From Rosellinia necatrix (lineage: Eukaryota > Ascomycota > Sordariomycetes > Xylariales > Xylariaceae), in the NCBI GenBank assembly GCA_021209875.1, contig JAGYVD010000002.1, positions 4,030,001 to 4,094,000 of the forward strand: a stretch of DNA of 64,000 nt, read 5' to 3'. The position numbers and the translations under genes are program-made. The notes below the pieces were generated by a model, which ran no database searches, had not been told where the DNA came from, and was given only the letters and a program-made list of their open reading frames with translations. Numbering within the stretch: position 1 is the first letter of the stretch; each line of letters starts with the position of its first letter. Positions 989-46,494 of this stretch are shown here, one piece after another.

Positions 989-1402
989 ATGAAAGGCATC
1001 GTGACACCTGCGCGAGGCCGCCCGGCCAAGATCACCAAATCAACCGCCACCCCGCGTACTCGTCCGCTGCGTCGGGTCGACACCGTCCCTAACCAAGACC
1101 CCGATCTCGAGGGGCCCCTCGTCCAGGACGACGACGAGGAGATTGGCGAGGGCGAGGGCGAGGGCGAGGGCGACATCGACGCCGACAACGAACAAGACCA
1201 CAACCAAGAGCAGCAGCAGCAGCAACAGCACCAGCAGCACCAGCAACACCAGCAGCATCATCAACAACAACAACATCTACAACAACAACAACAACATCAT
1301 CATGCTGACTTTGACTCGGAGGCCTCTGCAGCAGCGGCGGCGGCGGCAGCGGCAGTCCATCACCAGCAACAGCAACAGCAGCAACAGCAGCAGCAACAAC
1401 AA

Positions 1403-1452
<50 letters not shown>

Positions 1453-2347
1453 ACAGCAGCACCAACAACAGCAGCATCATCACCAAGCCCTCGACCTGAC
1501 CGCGGCGAGCATCCTCGCGAACAGCGTAAACAACCCCAACGACCAGCCCCACCACCCAGACCTCGGCGGCCCGCACGGCCCGCCTATGGACGGCCCGCCC
1601 GACGCGAACACCACCGAGAACCTGGCGCGGGAGTCCGGCTACAGCAGCGTGGTCGTCGAGAGCGCTCTGGCCAAGCGCCTGGCGCGGGAGCCCGGCATGC
1701 GGCTTGCCCAGCAGCGGCGTCCAGAGCAGGCCCTCAACTTGCAGCGGCGCAGTAACGTGGAGGCCCTGTTCGCGCACATCGCCGGCGACGCCGCCCCGAT
1801 GCCCTGCAAGAACTGCCACAAGGGCCACGGGCCGTGGACCACCTGCGTCGTCGTGGACGGGCAGATGTGCGGCAGCTGTGCCAATTGCTGGTTCAACGCC
1901 TCGGGGGCGAGGTGTTCCTTCCACGGTAAACACATGCCTACCCCGTCCCCCTTTCCCCCCTCCCCCCCCCGTCCTCTCATCCCTGCTCTATTTTCGGGCT
2001 CGTCGGAGCTAATCGGTCGCGTAGAAACCCGGAATCCCGTCGCGCACGGCGGCCAGGTCATGGGAGGCGATGCTATGGGCTTTCAGCTGCCCCCCGCGCC
2101 GCCCCAGGCCATGGCCCCCTTCAATTTCGCGTCCATCCCGGCGTCGTCGGACCCCGTGGTCCGGTACACCGTCGAGCAGGCCATGGCACAGGTTCGGGGC
2201 GCCGACAAGAAGACGCGCTACATGCTCATGATCGAGGCCGCGGCGCGGCAGCTTGCCTTCCAGATTGCCATGTATGAGGAAACGGTCCAGGAAGAGCAGC
2301 AGCAGGGCCCGCCTCCCGCTGTTATGGACGGTCCAGACGCGCCCTAG
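989..2347 (+). CDS. Poly-glutamine protein with DUF3716 zinc-like domain
   Basis: Seen: after a short basic N-terminus come an acidic Glu-Gly run, a Gln/His-rich stretch, an Ala run, a second tract of more than 30 Gln encoded by mixed CAG and CAA, and then a cysteine cluster (CKNC, CVV, MCGSCANC, RCSF) at about residues 270-310. That cluster is the pattern of DUF3716, a fungal domain often found in proteins suspected of acting in the nucleus; its function is not established. The reading frame is open for 452 residues. A good intron candidate lies at 1926-2024 (GTAAAC donor, pyrimidine-rich body, GTAG acceptor) just after the cysteine cluster; it is 99 nt, so removing it keeps frame and gives 419 residues. 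I start at ATG 989, the first in-frame ATG. Regulatory or chromatin roles would be guesses. Confidence 0.75.
1371..1483 (+). repeat. CAG/CAA trinucleotide tract (poly-Gln)
   Basis: An interrupted run of CAG and CAA codons encodes the long glutamine stretch of the DUF3716 protein; a shorter Gln/His-coding tract lies at about 1206-1310. Mixed codons suggest selection for glutamine rather than pure slippage, though length variation between strains is expected. Confidence 0.9.
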
Positions 2348-17283: not shown

Positions 17284-18706
17284 TCATAGCTTCGCCAGCG
17301 CTAGCTTCAGGCCCATCTTCAGCAGGCTCTTCGTCGCCGGCGCCTTTATGGTTCTTGACCCGTATGGCGCCGACCTCCCCATCTTCGATGACAGTCCAGT
17401 GCCATTTGTATGGAGTGTCGTGTTGAAGTTGTTCAACAACCCTTCAATAAACGTCGAGTTGCCAAGCGTATCGCCCAGTAAGTCGGTGAGAGAGGCCTCT
17501 CCATTAGCACTGAAACTGCTGATGATGTCCCCTAGTAGTGTGATGACTGGCATCGATGCTATTAACTTCTTCTTATTCAGAACCTTCTCCACGTATCCGA
17601 TATGAACTCCGTTGACCATAGTGGAGTTTCCGGTAGCTCTTAATTCGATATTACCCTCGGCAAGAGGCCCAGCTTGGCTGTCTAGGATGGGTCCAATATT
17701 GGGTAAAAGCTCATTGAGGAAGAGCTCACCCTCGAAGGGGCAAGAATTGTTTCCAGGGGGTAGAACAACGTTGTAGATGTTGACGAAACCAAGCCTGATG
17801 TCACCGGAAAACAAGTCGAGGGTGAGATTACCAAGTCCAAGGGTCAGCACGCCCGCGTTAGGTAAGTTGAGCGTTCCCTTAATATTTACGCCGTCCTCTC
17901 TAGGGGGGAAGATAAGGCGCAGGGTTGTGATGCCAAAGCCGTGCAAGTAGTTGAGAGCCCCTGCTTTGATTGTCTTGTGGATGTTCGCACTCATCTTCAG
18001 CGCCCCCAGGTGGATGGTTGGTTTACCCTTTACGGACAATTCTGCCTCGGGCAAGTCAAAGATTTTGTCAAAGAACTTGACCAGCTCGGTTTCGTTGGTC
18101 ACTGTGACAGTCTGGTTCGTGACCATGACGGGCGTCTTATGGTTCACGTGAAGCTTTGGCAAAGTAACGCTCATGAAGGGTGAATAGACCGGGGTTTCCT
18201 TATTGTAGACAAACAAGGTTGTGGGATCAAGGTCTGCTGGTAATGGCGTATCTAGCTGCGTTTCTAGCGTCACCGAGAGTTCCGTCGGCGACAGCGCCCG
18301 GAATGTACCCCCGATGATGGGGAGTTTCTGCGCATCAACTATGTCCTGCGTAATCGCCGGAATGATCTTGGTGAACCTGGGTCAGGGTTAACGGCGCTGC
18401 GTCTCCTCCGAGAGCCTCTATGAGCACTTACAAGAGCGGGAGCAAGATGATGGCGATGACTACAGCAGCGCCTAAATACCACCACTTGAATTGGCCGCAG
18501 TGCCGCTTCACCTTCTCCTTCTTCGTTAGCGGGACCACCGGCGGTGTCTTCTCATGAACATGGTCGACTGATGAGGCCTCGTCGCTGCCTCTCCCCGGAG
18601 CATCGGATGGACCGTCGACGCCATCACCCCTGGCGCCGTGAATCGAAGCCGGAGGGCTGCTGTGGTCAAAGTGGGATCGCTCCTGGAACTGGGACTCGGT
18701 GGCCAT
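17284..18706 (-). CDS. DUF3712 single-pass membrane protein
   Basis: Two exons, 18706-18432 and 18376-17284, give 455 residues. Seen: a hydrophilic, Ser/Pro/Asp-rich N-terminus, a charged KKEKVKRHC segment, then one strong transmembrane helix (WWYLGAAVVIAIILLPLLF) around residues 75-93 joined over the intron to TKIIPAITQDIVD. The rest, about 350 residues, is predicted outside the cytosol and carries LEA-like beta features typical of DUF3712, for example VNGVHIGYVEKV and several NxT sites (NQT, NET, NLT, NST). Function of DUF3712 is unknown; the family is widespread in Pezizomycotina and expected in the secretory or vacuolar membrane system. ATG 18706 is chosen over an upstream in-frame ATG because the latter would start inside a 10-bp tandem repeat. 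The intron is 55 nt. Confidence 0.82.
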
Positions 18707-18760: not shown

Positions 18761-21700
18761 CTTCTATCTAACCTAGGTGGTGGCAGATGGTAGGACGGCA
18801 GGCGGACGGGGAGAAGGAAAGATGAGCGAGCACCCCGGGGATTGATCGGTAGTTAGGTATCATATCATAGCCACGAACGAGGAGACCAAGAGACCATCAG
18901 GTACTGCCGCGGCAATATGACACCATATGTGCCATCCCTCGAGGCCAGCTGCCATCGTCAGTGCACCATCTCATCTCTTCATCTTGTACACTACCCCCAA
19001 CACGCCTCCCCACAGTTCCACTTCCTAGTCTTATCCCCGCACACGAGATATCTTCTAACCCTGGTCGCGAACATGCAAGACCAAGGCAGTTGCAGGGGCC
19101 CCGGCTCGGTTGTCTTGCCACTCCCCAGGTCGCCGGCGGGTTCTCACTGGGTCCCGGCCGGTCACGCTCTCATCCATACTCGTTTGGGTCTGTGGCGATC
19201 CAAGACCGTTGTTCAATATTGTGTCTCCCTAGCAGCTAAAGTGGACTCTTCAGAAAAATTTTGATGGCTTCGATGGCGCCTTCGTGGGCTTTCAGGCCTG
19301 TGTACTTAGTCAGTCTCGGCGGGATTTATTGTCGATCCTCCGGTATGCAGTAGGCACATGGTCCAGCCTTCCTGCTAACGATAATAACTACGACAAACGG
19401 GGAAATGCGGTAGAAAGCTTAGTCTCTGGCTCAAATAGCACCGTGGCCATACTGTAGCAGTTCTGTTGCCGTATTCCAAATATATACTACGCACATAGTA
19501 AACAAAACATCTGAGCGTTTTGATCTCGAACGTCCAGATGTTCAAAACGTTTGGGTAGGGCAGCCACAAATGCCAGGGGTGAAGGCTCACATACTACGGC
19601 GATCAAAACATGCCCTGGGTACCTGACTCGATCGCACCATCCTGGGCTGCTGGTTTAATCTCACCTATAAGCACATATTGGAGGTCTGTGGGCGTTCTAC
19701 TGCAAGGCTCCCGCGGTACGTACTATACAGTACTACTATAGTCTGGTAAGGCTCGCGTTTCTCCATGCCAAGAGCTCGCGACATCGTACCCATTGAGTGT
19801 GTATAATCTCCCAGAATATGCAAGGCCAACTCCCACCCGTGCTCGCACAACGCCCAGGGCTGCGCTAACTGGTGCGTGTTTATGCGAGTCACATAACTAG
19901 CGTTCCATTATGTATATCTATATGTATGCACACATGTACGTATGTAGTTATGGATCACCCATCTGTACACTATGCATGTACAAGTACGTAGTAGTGTAGT
20001 ATGTAGTGTAGTATGTAGTGGGTGCACAGTAGTGTAGTGTAGTTACAATACACTACGCTATGTGCGAGTTTGGCGTGATGATGGATCATGGATCAGGGTT
20101 GAGCTAGGTTAGTTAGCTTGTCAACGCACGCCACCAAGGAACGCCCAAGGAAAAAAGCAATGCTCACCACCCTAGCGTTGGCCGGTATAGGAACCCGTGC
20201 CGTTAACTTCCACCGTTTGACCATATGTATGTTGGCAATGGTGTTGGGACGCGTCGTTGGGCTTAGAGTGCACCAGACTGGCACCGGGATGGTCTGGGGC
20301 TTCGTCTCAGCTTCCATCTCATTTCAGAGTAACTGCAAGTACGTATGTAGTTGTGTAGTGCAGCTACATAGTACCGCAGCAGTATCGAATTTTCATCAAG
20401 GATAGACGAATAACTAACCCTTGCCATTTCGGCTTTTGCTGCCCAGAACCATCAAATCAACACTAGGCTAGTTCAGCTCGACTAAACCACAGGACAGTAC
20501 ACCACAATAACTAGTGAGTGTACTTGTGGACTTACACGACCAAACCATAGCATCCATCCGTAGCCTCTCCTCACCCGCAGCTTCAACTACAAGTAATACA
20601 GCTCACAACATGTACTCCCACGTGGCCACGACGGTGTCTAAACTTGCGGGGTTGCCCTGTTCTGGTCACAATGCTTTCCAGGCATGGACTAGACAGAGAC
20701 CAGGTTGGGCGGCGTTGAACTAAATTGCCTCGGCAATGCAAGAAAACGGCTGGCAAAAATAACTGACATTAGCTTGTGAGACTGGGATGGGGATGCGAGG
20801 TGGGAGAAGAAAGCTAGTATTGACAGTAAGACAGACTCAGAGTAGTGTACCGGCTACGACTCTACTGCGTACACTATGTTGTTGATCCAAAAGAAGTTGG
20901 CTTGGCTGACGCGATCCCCTCTTCAAGCGAGCGGTCAGGAAGCCTTCTCCATCCAGTCTGCCCCGGCCCGGAAGTTATTCCCTCGGCTCTTCCAGGCGTG
21001 GAGGTGGAGGTGGAGGAGGGGAGGGGAGGGGGAGACAAGGCCTAGCTGTGACGTATCGACACTAAAACATGAAATATTTCTGCTGCTGAGATCTCTGAGC
21101 AGACCTCTGAGCAGACCTCTGAGCAGTCCTCTGAGCAACGGGAAATTGGTCTTGGGTGGGGACAAGACAATTATTGCCCACTTGGTTTAGCTTGCGAGCC
21201 CGGTCGAAGGACAACAGATACACTACGTCCATAAACAGACATTCCACCCGTATAGCTGGAGGGGGAGCTGGGGAAACCGGGACGGGCTAGGCCACATGCG
21301 TAGGCGGATGACAGGGTGAGCAGGGGATCTGGCCAGGGGAGCTCATTGCCCAATACGGAGGCATGACCAGATGTGGGAAAGGATCCTCCACATTCTCTGC
21401 ATCCTGCAGGACGAGACCACACAAGACTACACTATCAAGGTACACTATCAAGGTACAGAGGGACCAAGGTTAATCGGCAATGCGCCTGCTTGGCTCTCCG
21501 CACTGACAGACAGAGTACTTCCCCAATCTTCAACGGAACTTAGCGTAGTTGTATTACTAGTACCTGTGCCCTGACGACCGTCGATCATGTGTAAACGAGA
21601 CAGACGAGCGATGGAGGCGTTTCGTCTGCCCGGTCCGCGAGAATAACTATTATTGCCCATGTCCCATACCCTTGGCCCGTCTGGTTTCTTCGTCTTTTCT

Positions 21701-21819: not shown

Positions 21820-24511
21820 ATGCGTTTCTCGACGCTCCTCGTAGCGGCCCTGACGCCGGCAGGGCTGTTCGCAGATAACGCAGCCCGGACAGCCTCGACA
21901 GCAGAGCTTGGTCTGGATCCCGCAGCCCTGGACGCACTGCTGGCGAAGCATAACCTCGCAATAGTGCCCCGGTCAGAGCTCACAGATGCCTTGACGGAGC
22001 TCAACAGCCTCCTCAGGAAGAGCCAGGCACAGCAGTTCCGGACGCCATTGTACCCAAGAGCGAAAGCCAGCACCAATGAAACCGATTCGGGTTCGGGGTC
22101 CGGATCTCGATCAGGTTCAGGTTCAGGTTCAGGTTCAGGTTCAAGCGACGGGGGCTCCGCTACACAGGATCTTGGCGATCTCCTCCCAGGTCTCGGCGAT
22201 CTGGGCGACATTATCGGCGGATTAAAAGATGCCTTGAGCCCCTTGGACGACCTGGGAGCCCTCCTAAAAGCCCTTTCAGAACTATTAACCCCTCAGTTTT
22301 TGCAGGCTGTGCATGACTCACTCACATATCTGGCTGAGACACTTCAGCCGCCTATCCCCCAACTCGCCCGGGGGCTGCTCATGAAGGCTGGCCCATTGGT
22401 CGATCTCCTCGGCGAATTACCACTAAAGGAACTCGTCGGGGAAATTAAGGATATCGATCTTAAGGGGATAGTGGCGGCCCTGAAGCCCCTACTCACGCCC
22501 GAGACAATCGAGAGCCTCGTCCAGTTGCTGAACAACGCCGGCAGTCTATTGACTAAGGACACGGTCGATGACCTGAAGTCTCTCCTTACTAGCGCCAAGC
22601 CGCTTATTGACACCTTGGGAGACCTCGACATCAAGGGGCTTCTGGAAGCACTCAACCCCCTCCTCCAGCCCAAGGCCATCAATGGCCTCGTCACCCTGCT
22701 GGGCAACGCCGAGGAGCTCTTGGACCAGGATACCGTCCATGCGCTCAAGTCTCTATTGGTGGTTGCCCAGCCCCTGATCGAAACTCTTGGAGAGATCGAT
22801 CTGAAGGGGATATTAGACACCCTCCGACCATTCATCACGCCCGACATCGTCAAGAGCATTATACTCTTGGTTGCCAACGCCGAAAACCTCCTGACTTCCG
22901 ATTTCGTCACGCAAACCAAGGGTCTGGTTGCTGGCGCCGGACCCCTCGTTGAAAGTCTCAAGGGCCTAGACTTGGAAAGCTTGATCAACCAGATCAAACC
23001 CATCCTCAACGAGGTTGGCAAGCTTGATTTGGAAGGCCTCTTCAAGGCTCTGGAACCCTTGTTGACGGAAGACTCCATCAAGGGCCTGATCGGCCTCCTC
23101 GGCAATGCGGAGAGTCTGCTTACCAGTCAATTCGTAGACCAGACCAAGGACTTGATCTCTGGAGCCGGTCCTCTGGTCAAGAGCCTCGGCGACCTGGACC
23201 TCGAAGACCTCATTAAGCAAGTCAAGCCGCTCCTAAACGAACTCGGCAAGATTGACCTTGCTGGCCTAGTCAACGCAGTCAAGCCGCTGCTGACTGAGGA
23301 GTCGGTCAAGGGCCTGATCGCCCTACTTGGAAATGCAGAGAATCTGCTTACCAGCCAATTCGTAGACCAGACCAAGGACCTAATCTCTGGAGCTGGACCC
23401 CTGATCAAGAGCCTCAGCGGCCTGGACCTCGAAGACCTCATTAAGCAAGTTAAGCCACTCCTGAATGAACTCGGCAAGATTGACCTCGCTGGCCTGCTCG
23501 ACGCAGTCAAGCCGCTGCTTTCTGAGGAGTCGGTCAAGGGCTTGATCAGCCTTCTCGGAAATGCAGAAGCCCTGTTGACCAAGGACTTCGTGGACGAGAC
23601 CCAGACGCTCGTCGGCGGCGCCGTTCCTCTGGTGTCAGCGCTCGGCAAGCTCAACCTACCCCAGCTTATTGAAAAGGTGTCGCCGCTCTTGGACGAGCTG
23701 TCCAAGATCGATATCTCCAAGCTTATCGGCCTGGTTGAGCCGCTCCTGGACGAGCTTAGCAAGATCGACCTCGAGGCCTTGCTCAGGCAGCTGTCGCCTA
23801 TCTTGAACGCCGTGGGCCAGATTGACATCGCGGGTCTTATCAAGAAGATCACGCCAATCCTAAACGAATTCGGCATGCTCGACCTCGAGGGCACGTATAA
23901 GGCTCTCCTGCCTCTGCTGACGCCCCAGTCCGTGACCGGCATCGTGGGCCTCGTCGACAACGCCGAGTCGTTGCTGACAGGCAAGTTCGTCAACCAGACT
24001 CAAACCCTGGTTGGCGACGCTGTGCCGCTCGTCGATGCACTGAGCGACATCGATCTCAAGGGCCTCTTGGCACAGGTTACACCCTTGCTCAACGAGCTCG
24101 GCGAGATCGACCTGAAGGGTCTCTTAGCCAAGGTCGCGCCGCTCCTCAACACGCTCGCAGAGGTCGACCTCTCCGGGCTCGTCAAGAGCATCAAGCCGAT
24201 CCTGGGCGCCCTCAACGACATCGACATCCAGGGCATTGTCGACCAACTCAAGCCTCTCATTACCCCCAACTCGATCAAGGGTATCGTAAATCTTGTAGAC
24301 AACGCCAAGGCTCTTCTGTCGTCCACTTTCGTAGACCAGACAACCGAACTAATCGGCGATGCTACACCCGTAAGTCCACCAGGCCCTGTCCCCCATCCCA
24401 TCTCGCTTTCCCTTCATCCAGGCAGAGCTGTTGCTAACATCATCGTAGATCGTCGCCACTCTCTCCGATTTCATCAACGCTCTGCTCCAGGCGTTGTTGC
24501 AACAGGATTAA
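21820..24511 (+). CDS. Large secreted protein with strict 19-residue helical repeat register
   Basis: Two exons, 21820-24369 and 24449-24511, give 870 residues. Seen: a signal peptide-like N-terminus (MRFSTLLVAALTPAGLFA), a Ser-Gly linker at residues 89-113, then about 740 residues of leucine-rich, predicted all-helical repeats with no cysteine. A module of the form (I/L)DLxGLLxxVxPLLxxLGx recurs at residues 212, 269, 326, 383, 402, 459, 478, 535, 554, 611, 630, 649, 668, 687, 744, 763, 782 and 801; every interval is 19 or 57 (three times 19). The 57-residue intervals hold a second module with SVKGLI-LLGNAE-LLT and FVDQTKxLI. The C-terminus, spliced over a 79-nt intron, is a short amphipathic IVATLSDFINALLQALLQQD. 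I recognise no named family; a solenoid or lipid/surface-binding role is only a guess. ATG 21820 follows ACCACC. Confidence 0.85.
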
Positions 24512-44756: not shown

Positions 44757-45179
44757 GTAGACGAGAAAAACGAGATAACAAGTGGAGTAAACAGAGGCAC
44801 GCTCTTGTAATACTCGACACCCCAAACTCCTATGTGCTAGTCGCACATGTAGATAGATGTATAACAGTTCAATATATACAAGAGATCTATCTGATCAGTC
44901 TAGGAACATAGTACAGGCGCTAGATATGATGACCGATCTTGTGTATAGCGTGAGTGTTCGTGGCTCCTTGGCTTTAGAAGGGATTTCCCCGCCTCGTCTA
45001 GAATGCAGTCAGTTACAAGAAGACACAGCGAACGCCATGAAACCCCTCTCTTTACTTTTTTATTTTGTTTTTTTTCTCAAGCTTTTTTGTTTACACCCAA
45101 CCTCGGATCCCCTCCCCTCCCCTCCCCTCCTCTCCCACCCCACCAAACACACCACTCACACGCACATCTATCCGTCCGT
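44757..45179. other. Convergent 3' intergenic region
   Basis: Between the 390-residue protein and cysteine synthase. A CCCCTCC-type pyrimidine tract at about 45108-45140 and T-runs near 45055-45085 are seen; no gene. Confidence 0.45.
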
Positions 45180-46494
45180 CTAGGCCAAGACGATGTACTT
45201 CTCGAGGTGCTTAGGGATGGCGCCGAGGAGGCCCTTGCCCTCGAGCCAGGCGCGGGAGAAGAGGCGGTCGGCGTAGCGGTAGGCGCCGTCGCAGAGGACG
45301 GTGACGACGGTGTGGCCGGGGCCGAGGAGGCGGGCGACGTCGCGGGCGGCGACGACGTTGAGGGGCGCTGCTGGCGCCGAGGTAGAGGCCCTCGTCGTCG
45401 AGGCAGCGGTAGACCATGGCGACGCTCTCGGCGTCGGGCACGTGCAGGCTGCCGTCGAGCAGCGCGAGGTCCGGCGCGAGGTTGTCGGTCACGCGGCCCT
45501 GCCCGATGCCCTCGGTGATGCTGCCGCCGCTGCGCTCGACGAGCGTCCCGCCCGACTGGATGTACGAGTGGAGGACGGAGCCCGGGGGATCCGCCAGGTA
45601 GCTGCGCACCCGGCCCCCCGAGGCCTCCTTGAGGAACCGCGTGGTGCCCGCCAGCGTGCCGCCGGTGCCCGTGGCGCACGTGAAGGCGTCGACGGCGCCG
45701 CCCGTCTGCGCCCAGATCTCCGGGCCCGTCGTCTCGACGTGGGCGCGGCGGTTCGCCGTGTTGTCGAACTGGTTCGTCCAGACGGCGTTGCCGCCGGACT
45801 CGTCGCGCAGGCGCTCGGCGTGCCGCCGCGCCTGGTGGTTGTAGTTGGCCGGGTCGTCGAAGGGCACGGCCGGCACGGGGTAGACCTCGGCGCCGAGCAG
45901 CCGTAGCAGGTCGACCTTGCCCTGCGACTGCGTGTCCGGCATGTAGATGACCAGCCGGTAGCCCCGCGACCGGCACACGTGCGCCAGCCCGATCCCCGTG
46001 TTACCTGCCGTCCCCTCCACCACCGTGCCCCCGGCCCGCAGCAGGCCCCGCTCCTCCGCGTCCTTCACCACGTACAGCGCCGCCCGGTCCTTCACCGAGC
46101 CCCCCGGGTTCATGAACTCCGCCTTGCCCAGCACCGAGCAGCCCGTCTCCTCCGAGAGCTTGTTCAGCTTGATGAGCGGCGTGTTACCGATGGCTGGTGG
46201 TGGTGGTGGTGGCTCGTTAGCAAGCGAGGTCTCGCAAGGGTTGATTATCTGAGGGTTGTTGTTCTCTTTATTTTTATTTTATTTTTATTTTATTTTATTT
46301 TTTGGAGGGAGGGAGGGAGGAAAGGGACGAGGACAACAAAAATCTGCGCAGAACTTACCACCAGTGAGCCCATTCACGATGCCCTGCGCTTTCGAGACCG
46401 CGAGCGTGTAAGGGCTGGGTTCATGAGCCACCACAGGAGCGACGGCTCTGCGTGCGGCTGCCGTCGCGAACCGTCGGACGCTGTGGCCAAACAT
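45180..46494 (-). CDS. Mitochondrial cysteine synthase, with a frameshift near the C-terminus
   Basis: Exons 46494-46359 and 46193-45180; the total is one base more than a multiple of three. Seen: a presequence-like [20 protein letters not shown], then [19 protein letters not shown], the PLP lysine in [31 protein letters not shown] and [13 protein letters not shown], all of the fold-type II O-acetylserine sulfhydrylase family, which makes cysteine from O-acetylserine and sulfide. The frame breaks after [10 protein letters not shown] at a run of four C (sense strand; 45362-45365). Reading on in the next frame restores [17 protein letters not shown] and a normal end at [10 protein letters not shown]; without the shift the protein ends with a foreign Arg/Pro tail at 45211. 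A single-base sequencing error is as likely as a real mutation. Intron is 165 nt. Confidence 0.85.

What the first reader, a model, noticed from the sequence alone, without database searches (positions are those of the whole stretch)
21820..24511. Secreted protein locked to a strict 19-residue repeat register over about 600 residues
Eighteen copies of an (I/L)DLxGLL..PLL module start at residues 212 to 801, and every spacing is 19 or 57 residues (31 register steps with no slip). The 57-residue spacings contain a second 38-residue module (SVKGLI-LLGNAE, FVDQTKxLI), so the whole array reads as 19-residue helical units with two alternating types. With a signal peptide, a Ser-Gly linker and no cysteine, it looks like an extended helical solenoid or amphipathic surface/lipid-binding scaffold. 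I know no named family with this layout, which makes it the best candidate here for something undescribed.
Basis: partly seen in the sequence, partly recalled or inferred. Interest (0 to 1): 0.85.

Follow-up and report, generated by a model that had tools for sequence, protein, structure and literature searches.

The report
Fungal secreted 19-residue helix-repeat protein
A fungus encodes a probably secreted protein built mostly from one 19-amino-acid unit, probably a helix, repeated 34 times in a row without a slip in four unit types that follow an order rule; a Cordyceps protein uses the same unit types under a similar rule, and no named protein family matched.

Summary
A two-exon gene (21820-24369, 24449-24511; 870 aa, no Cys) holds 34 consecutive 19-residue units (residues 212-857); 34 of 34 score best in one register. 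Order: ABCx3, aABCx3, aaaaABC, aaaABC. A Cordyceps militaris protein (P0002) keeps register, unit types and N-terminal domain but cycles mostly as aAC; a Fusarium fujikuroi protein (P0001) is looser.

No family reached its Pfam cut-off, none matched in NCBIfam, and PDB matches were linker-only or chance-level. dN/dS between copies was 0.09-0.59 in 12 usable comparisons. Predicted secondary structure is helical without strands, but both AlphaFold models have low confidence (pLDDT 31 and 41), so the three-dimensional fold is NOT established.

Best reading: a secreted, acidic, modular alpha-helical rod or solenoid acting as an extracellular or cell-wall scaffold. Odd cycles (3 and 7 units) argue against a plain two-helix-hairpin solenoid. 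Lipid-belt helices are less favoured by charge. An undescribed variant of helical repeat proteins; not an orphan, and not proven to be a new fold.

The parts
21820..24511 (+). gene span, two exons 21820-24369 and 24449-24511, 870 aa
   Evidence: open frame, GTAAGT donor, CTAAC branch-like site at 24434, TAG acceptor; removal of the 79-nt intron continues the helical frame to a stop. No transcript evidence
21820..21873 (+). probable signal peptide (residues 1-18, MRFSTLLVAALTPAGLFA)
   Evidence: read from the sequence by eye; no predictor was available. P0002 has a hydrophobic stretch before the conserved domain, but its gene model differs upstream
21895..22026 (+). conserved N-terminal domain, residues 26-69 (contains LDALLAKHNLAIVPRSELTDALTELNSLLRK)
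   Evidence: 25 of 44 identical to Cordyceps P0002, E 2e-12 in a pairwise test
22084..22161 (+). Ser/Gly-rich linker, residues about 89-114
   Evidence: sequence; 6-bp tandem repeat TCAGGT at 22111-22143
22180..22452 (+). N-terminal cap of the array, residues about 121-211, repeat-like but in another phase, ending in a 12-residue partial unit
   Evidence: 35 of 93 identical to P0002; phases
22453..24369 (+). repeat array, exon-1 part: 19-residue units from residue 212 to 850 (order ABC ABC ABC aABC aABC aABC aaaaABC aaaABC; the last C unit runs into exon 2)
23078..23567 (+). closest copies: 228-bp (76-residue) tandem repeat, 2.1 copies, 88% matches
   Evidence: dN 0.049, dS 0.368 between residues 421-496 and 497-572
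24370..24448 (+). single intron
24449..24511 (+). exon 2: end of the last C unit and a 13-residue tail FINALLQALLQQD

Best explanation
It is a secreted, acidic, alpha-helical tandem-repeat protein of Hypocreales-type fungi (order inferred from the two relatives). Each 19-residue unit makes one amphipathic helix with the same hydrophobic core positions (6, 7, 10, 13, 14; also 3 in types a, A, B and 17 in types a, C). The helices pack side by side through that stripe into a long modular rod or solenoid with a hydrophilic, negatively charged surface. The conserved N-terminal domain plus the flexible Ser/Gly linker hold it at its place of action, most likely the cell wall or extracellular matrix, so that it works as a spacer or scaffold whose length is set by duplication of units. 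Shown: register, unit types, order rule, conservation of units, purifying selection between copies. Supported only by low-confidence models: helical secondary structure. Inferred: packing into a rod, secretion, location and scaffold role.
For: 34 of 34 units in one register. Positions 10, 13 and 14 are hydrophobic in 34 of 34 units, 6 and 7 in 33 of 34, in all four types. Amphipathic peak at 100-105 degrees per residue. No strands, and helix starts repeating at 76 with about one helix per 19-mer (9 helices in 8 units, one C helix split). Helix caps fit the sequence by eye (Asp2 before a and A, Thr15 before B and C). Ala at position 10 in 16 of 34 units and Gly at position 5 in 15 of 34, small residues that suit close helix packing. 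Net charge -38 over 646 residues. Register and unit types kept in P0002. dN/dS of 0.13, 0.18 and 0.37 between 76-residue copies and 0.13, 0.12, 0.31 at other offsets of 76.
Against: AlphaFold gave no confident tertiary structure with 3 or 6 rows (pLDDT 31.0 and 40.6; pTM 0.19 and 0.20), and in the full-length model the helices are irregular and some units have none. Proline at position 12 in 26 of 34 units may kink the helices. No signal-peptide predictor, expression or localisation data. P0001 does not keep a single register (15 of its 26 high-scoring windows in one phase). Three of 12 usable copy comparisons have dN/dS of 0.42-0.59.
Confidence: 0.5

Rival explanations
1. Apolipoprotein- or perilipin-like belt: the units are separate amphipathic helices that lie on lipid or on hydrophobic surfaces (cuticle, aerial hyphae) and do not pack with each other when free.
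For: Strong amphipathicity of the mean unit; regular proline punctuation (26 of 34 units); low AlphaFold confidence fits helices without a fixed tertiary fold; 9 Phe in the array; repetitive amphipathic surface proteins exist in fungi, e.g. Ustilago Rep1 (PMC4617103, passages seen).
Against: 0 of 34 units reach 1.34 and 6 of 34 lie at 0.68-1.34 in a HeliQuest-type score (formula and cut-offs recalled, no control protein run); units are net negative on average; no Trp and one Tyr in the array; basic residues do not sit nearer the hydrophobic face than acidic ones (mean angles 127 and 112 degrees), so no class-A pattern; lag 22 scores -0.32 against 0.89 at lag 19.
Confidence: 0.2
2. Secreted effector or host-interaction protein (the organism's lifestyle is unknown) using a modular helical scaffold to bind host proteins, comparable in logic to repeat-containing effectors.
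For: Probable signal peptide, no enzyme domain found, expandable repeats; both relatives found are from fungi that live on insects or plants (names; lifestyles from general knowledge).
Against: The 76-residue copies are conserved rather than diversifying (dN/dS 0.13-0.37); no second copy in the genome at the search's sensitivity; large size and no cysteine.
Confidence: 0.15
3. String of separate three-helix bundles (57-residue beads) rather than one continuous solenoid.
For: Many cycles are three units: ABC three times here, aAC six times in P0002.
Against: Single units are inserted freely (cycles of 3, 4, 6 and 7 units) and there is no linker between cycles.
Confidence: 0.1

Closest known systems
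Cordyceps militaris CCM_07087 (P0002, 819 aa, UniRef name begins 'Aggrecan core') and Fusarium fujikuroi CEK25_007815 (P0001, 1292 aa)
   Same: Same 19-residue units. P0002 also has the same N-terminal domain and cap, and one strict register (23 of 23 windows over 12 bits in one phase).
   Different: P0002 cycles mostly as aAC (57) and has one aABC; P0001 is more divergent with phase changes. Neither has a Pfam match over its cut-off; nearest are NAF (23.7 against 25 bits) for P0002 and Adaptin_N (16.1 against 37) for P0001.
Alpha-solenoid repeats (TPR, PPR, SEL1, HEAT, ARM, Pumilio)
   Same: Tandem amphipathic helices; chance-level match of a profile to designed ARM repeats (best E 0.08).
   Different: Unit of probably one helix and 19 residues, with odd cycles of 3 and 7 units; no Pfam match to these at E up to 1. 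Helix numbers per unit of the known families are recalled.
Apolipoproteins, perilipins and LEA proteins (11- or 22-residue amphipathic repeats; recalled)
   Same: Amphipathic helical tandem repeats, proline punctuation in apolipoproteins (recalled).
   Different: Period 19, acidic, no Trp and one Tyr (9 Phe), no class-A charge pattern.
Ustilago maydis Rep1 and Hum3 (secreted amphipathic repeat proteins, PMC4617103, passages)
   Same: Fungal amphipathic repeat proteins outside the cell.
   Different: Rep1 repeats are 34-55 aa and separated by Kex2 sites; here the whole protein has two dibasic pairs, RK at 66 and KK at 675, and no KR or RR. Hum3's repeats are followed by a hydrophobin domain; none here.
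Filamentous-haemagglutinin-type beta-helix with 19-residue repeats (PMC3756990, search listing and abstract start only; the protein and repeat type are recalled)
   Same: Period of 19.
   Different: Predicted helical, not beta: no strand in either model.

Membership tests
Same family as Cordyceps CCM_07087 | 19-residue units in one register, same unit types | tested here: met
   23 of 23 windows in one phase; each type is most alike to its own kind (a-a 0.41, A-A 0.53, B-B 0.52, C-C 0.36), though a-A is close at 0.38
Same family as Cordyceps CCM_07087 | shared N-terminal domain and array cap | tested here: met
   25 of 44 residues, 35 of 93
Alpha-solenoid families in Pfam (TPR, HEAT, ARM, ANK, PPR, SEL1, LRR) | match to a curated profile at its cut-off | tested here: not met
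   (exon-1 product, 850 aa): 7 families at E up to 1, none over its cut-off, none of these
Alpha-solenoid (as architecture) | stacked helices in a superhelix | tested here: inconclusive
   helical secondary structure without strands but pLDDT 31.0 and 40.6
Two-helix hairpin solenoid | even number of helices per cycle | tested here: inconclusive
   B-to-B distances of 3, 3, 4, 4, 4, 7, 6 units: not met if each 19-mer is one helix, which rests on low-confidence models
Apolipoprotein-like lipid-binding helices | 11- or 22-residue period, lipid-type discriminant, class-A charge pattern | tested here: not met
   lag 22 scores -0.32; for the other two; lipid binding itself was not testable
Kex2-processed repeat proteins (Rep1 type) | KR or RR between repeats | tested here: not met
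   pairs RK at 66 and KK at 675 only
Hydrophobins and HsbA | eight cysteines (recalled); or HsbA profile | tested here: not met
   no cysteine in 870 residues; no such Pfam match
Secreted protein | signal peptide that works | not testable with these tools
   hydrophobic N-terminus by eye only

The most novel reading that the evidence does not exclude
A new class of helical repeat protein in which the repeating step is a single 19-residue helix rather than a hairpin, so that helices can be added one at a time. Four unit types obey an order rule (a)n-A-(B)-C shared between fungal genera while cycle length changes. The result would be a length-tunable extracellular helical rod, a natural counterpart of designed repeat proteins.
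Probability: 0.3. Interest if true: 0.68.

Novelty: new variant of a known kind. Interest (0 to 1): 0.52.

Why it matters
Known alpha-solenoids grow by hairpins or three-helix units (recalled). A natural array that grows by single helices under an order rule shared between genera, with an indel-free register over 646 residues, would be a new building principle and a ready source of modular scaffolds. It would also give a first handle on an unnamed fungal surface or secreted protein family; no description was found in the keyword searches (an open-access library only).

Tried and rejected
AlphaFold of exon 1 with three rows and of residues 459-610 with six rows made from repeat segments and P0002: both low confidence, so no fold search was run. 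A first alignment of overlapping segments (A2) aligned identical stretches to themselves and was dropped; A3 was used for a PDB profile search and A4 for the model. The second protein search (residues 20-125) found nothing, probably swamped by Ser/Gly words (7990 candidates, capped). The third (residues 23-83, 719 candidates) found nothing at E up to 10 and did not return even P0002, which has the domain; I cannot explain this, and it means absence in these searches proves little. The two relatives (7992 candidates, capped) are a lower bound. A prokaryote genome scan with residues 212-850 gave no relative (116 stretches matched a pattern, none confirmed). The search of the own genome found no paralogue at its sensitivity; of two matches, one is the gene and the other a minus-strand match inside it with six stops, rejected.

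Rejected ideas: beta-helix (no strands), LRR (no Pfam match), Kex2-processed peptides (no sites), chance frame (homologues, dN/dS). dN/dS: 14 comparisons (3, 11), 2 saturated and unusable; of the 12 left, 9 are 0.09-0.37 and 3 are 0.42-0.59 (687/801, 611/630, 269/326). They overlap and are not independent.

Papers: PMC4617103, PMC11514114 and PMC7542391 seen as passages (the last names an 'Aggrecan core protein' gene family near LTR elements in Ophiocordyceps, not shown to be this family); all others only as search listings with the start of the abstract.

Full report
What is there. The window lies in a genome of 49.1 Mb in 12 contigs. The gene runs 21820-24511 on the + strand with one 79-nt intron (24370-24448) and encodes 870 residues. 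The order is: hydrophobic N-terminus, conserved domain 26-69, Ser/Gly linker, cap about 121-211, 34 units of 19 residues (212-857), 13-residue tail.

Check of the observation. Written in rows of 19 from residue 212, 34 of 34 rows score best in the common phase with a profile made from the other rows (38 rows were tested, and 3 of the 4 rows before residue 212 prefer another phase). Among lags 5-129, autocorrelation is positive only at 76, 57, 114, 19, 95 and 38 (whose last 20 residues were misread). On residues 136-857 of the corrected protein the value is 0.90 at 19 and 1.57 at 76, against at most -0.43 in 300 shuffles. Its 57-residue gaps hold two more 19-mers, B and C, with the same core hydrophobic positions, so the array is one 19-residue ladder.

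Unit types and order. Examples are a: LDLEDLIKQVKPLLNELGK; A: IDLAGLLDAVKPLLSEESV; B: KGLISLLGNAEALLTKDFV; C: DQTKDLISGAGPLIKSLSG. The labels were set by eye; each unit is nearest to its own type when left out, 34 of 34. Different types share only 20-35% identity on average, like types 47-57%. The order is ABC ABC ABC aABC aABC aABC aaaaABC aaaABC. Only the steps A-B, B-C, C-a, C-A, a-a and a-A occur, and 0 of 200000 shuffles of the labels obey that rule (block duplication alone produces order, so this is no test of selection). B-to-B distances are 3, 3, 4, 4, 4, 7, 6 units.

Relatives. A search of 5.8 billion proteins found two (candidates capped): P0001 of Fusarium fujikuroi (32% identity) and P0002 of Cordyceps militaris (35%). 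P0002 has 23 windows over 12 bits, all in one phase, against a mean of 0.14 in 50 shuffles. P0001 has 26, of which 15 are in one phase, so strict register is not universal or its gene model is faulty. P0002 reads a-(aAC)x5-aABC-aAC by nearest type (23 units; the first label is doubtful), so it mostly skips B. Like types are the most alike between the two proteins, though a and A are close (a-a 0.41, a-A 0.38). The N-terminal domain (25 of 44 identical) and cap (35 of 93) also match. Unit types and the order rule thus seem older than the split, while the cycle (76 here, 57 there) is lineage-specific, as expected from block duplication. The closest copies here are the 228-bp repeat at 23078-23567.

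Selection. Between 76-residue copies dN/dS is 0.13, 0.18 and 0.37, and 0.13, 0.12 and 0.31 at other offsets. Over the 12 usable comparisons it is 0.09-0.59, 9 of them below 0.4; 2 more are saturated. The protein sequence is maintained, more loosely in some copies.

Structure. Positions 10, 13 and 14 are hydrophobic in 34 of 34 units, 6 and 7 in 33, 3 in 28 and 17 in 18, which gives a helical stripe. AlphaFold models have low confidence (mean pLDDT 31.0 for 850 residues, 40.6 for 152 residues). Neither has a strand. The full-length model has irregular helices and gaps. In the 152-residue model helix starts recur at exactly 76 (3/79, 22/98, 35/111, 54/130), about one helix per 19-mer (9 helices in 8 units because one C helix is split). 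The tertiary fold is not determined, and no fold search was run on such models. Because cycles of 3 and 7 units occur, a two-helix hairpin solenoid in which helices alternate inside and outside would have its parity broken there. This suggests (inference) that units are quasi-equivalent single-helix steps, or that they do not stack as a solenoid at all.

Function. Lipid binding is less favoured: acidic units, no Trp and one Tyr in the array (but 9 Phe), no unit at the recalled HeliQuest threshold (0 of 34 at 1.34 or more, 6 of 34 at 0.68-1.34), and no class-A charge pattern. A scaffold or spacer at the wall or in the extracellular space is the most likely role (0.5); lipid or hydrophobic-surface belt 0.2; effector 0.15; beads of three-helix bundles 0.1. 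Location and role are inference.

Known or new. No Pfam family over its cut-off, no NCBIfam match, PDB matches only around the Ser/Gly linker (14 of 14) or at chance level (best E 0.08, 0.74), and no description in nine keyword searches. I file it as an undescribed variant of helical repeat proteins, with relatives in at least two other genera.

Noticed in passing
17284-18273 (-): DUF3712 protein (Pfam E 1e-28), another protein of unknown function about 3.5 kb upstream of the gene.
   Followed up: no
45077-46134 (-): Two overlapping frames that together read like a PLP-dependent cysteine-synthase-type enzyme (by eye, no search), probably split by an intron or frameshift.
   Followed up: no
989-2347 (+): ORF with very long glutamine runs (CAG/CAA arrays at 1209-1476).
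   Followed up: no
P0002 and P0001: Public gene models of the relatives look faulty: P0002 starts with unrelated residues before the conserved domain, and P0001 changes phase several times.
   Followed up: partly
21089-21137: 12-bp tandem repeat AGACCTCTGAGC (4.1 copies) upstream of the gene.
   Followed up: no
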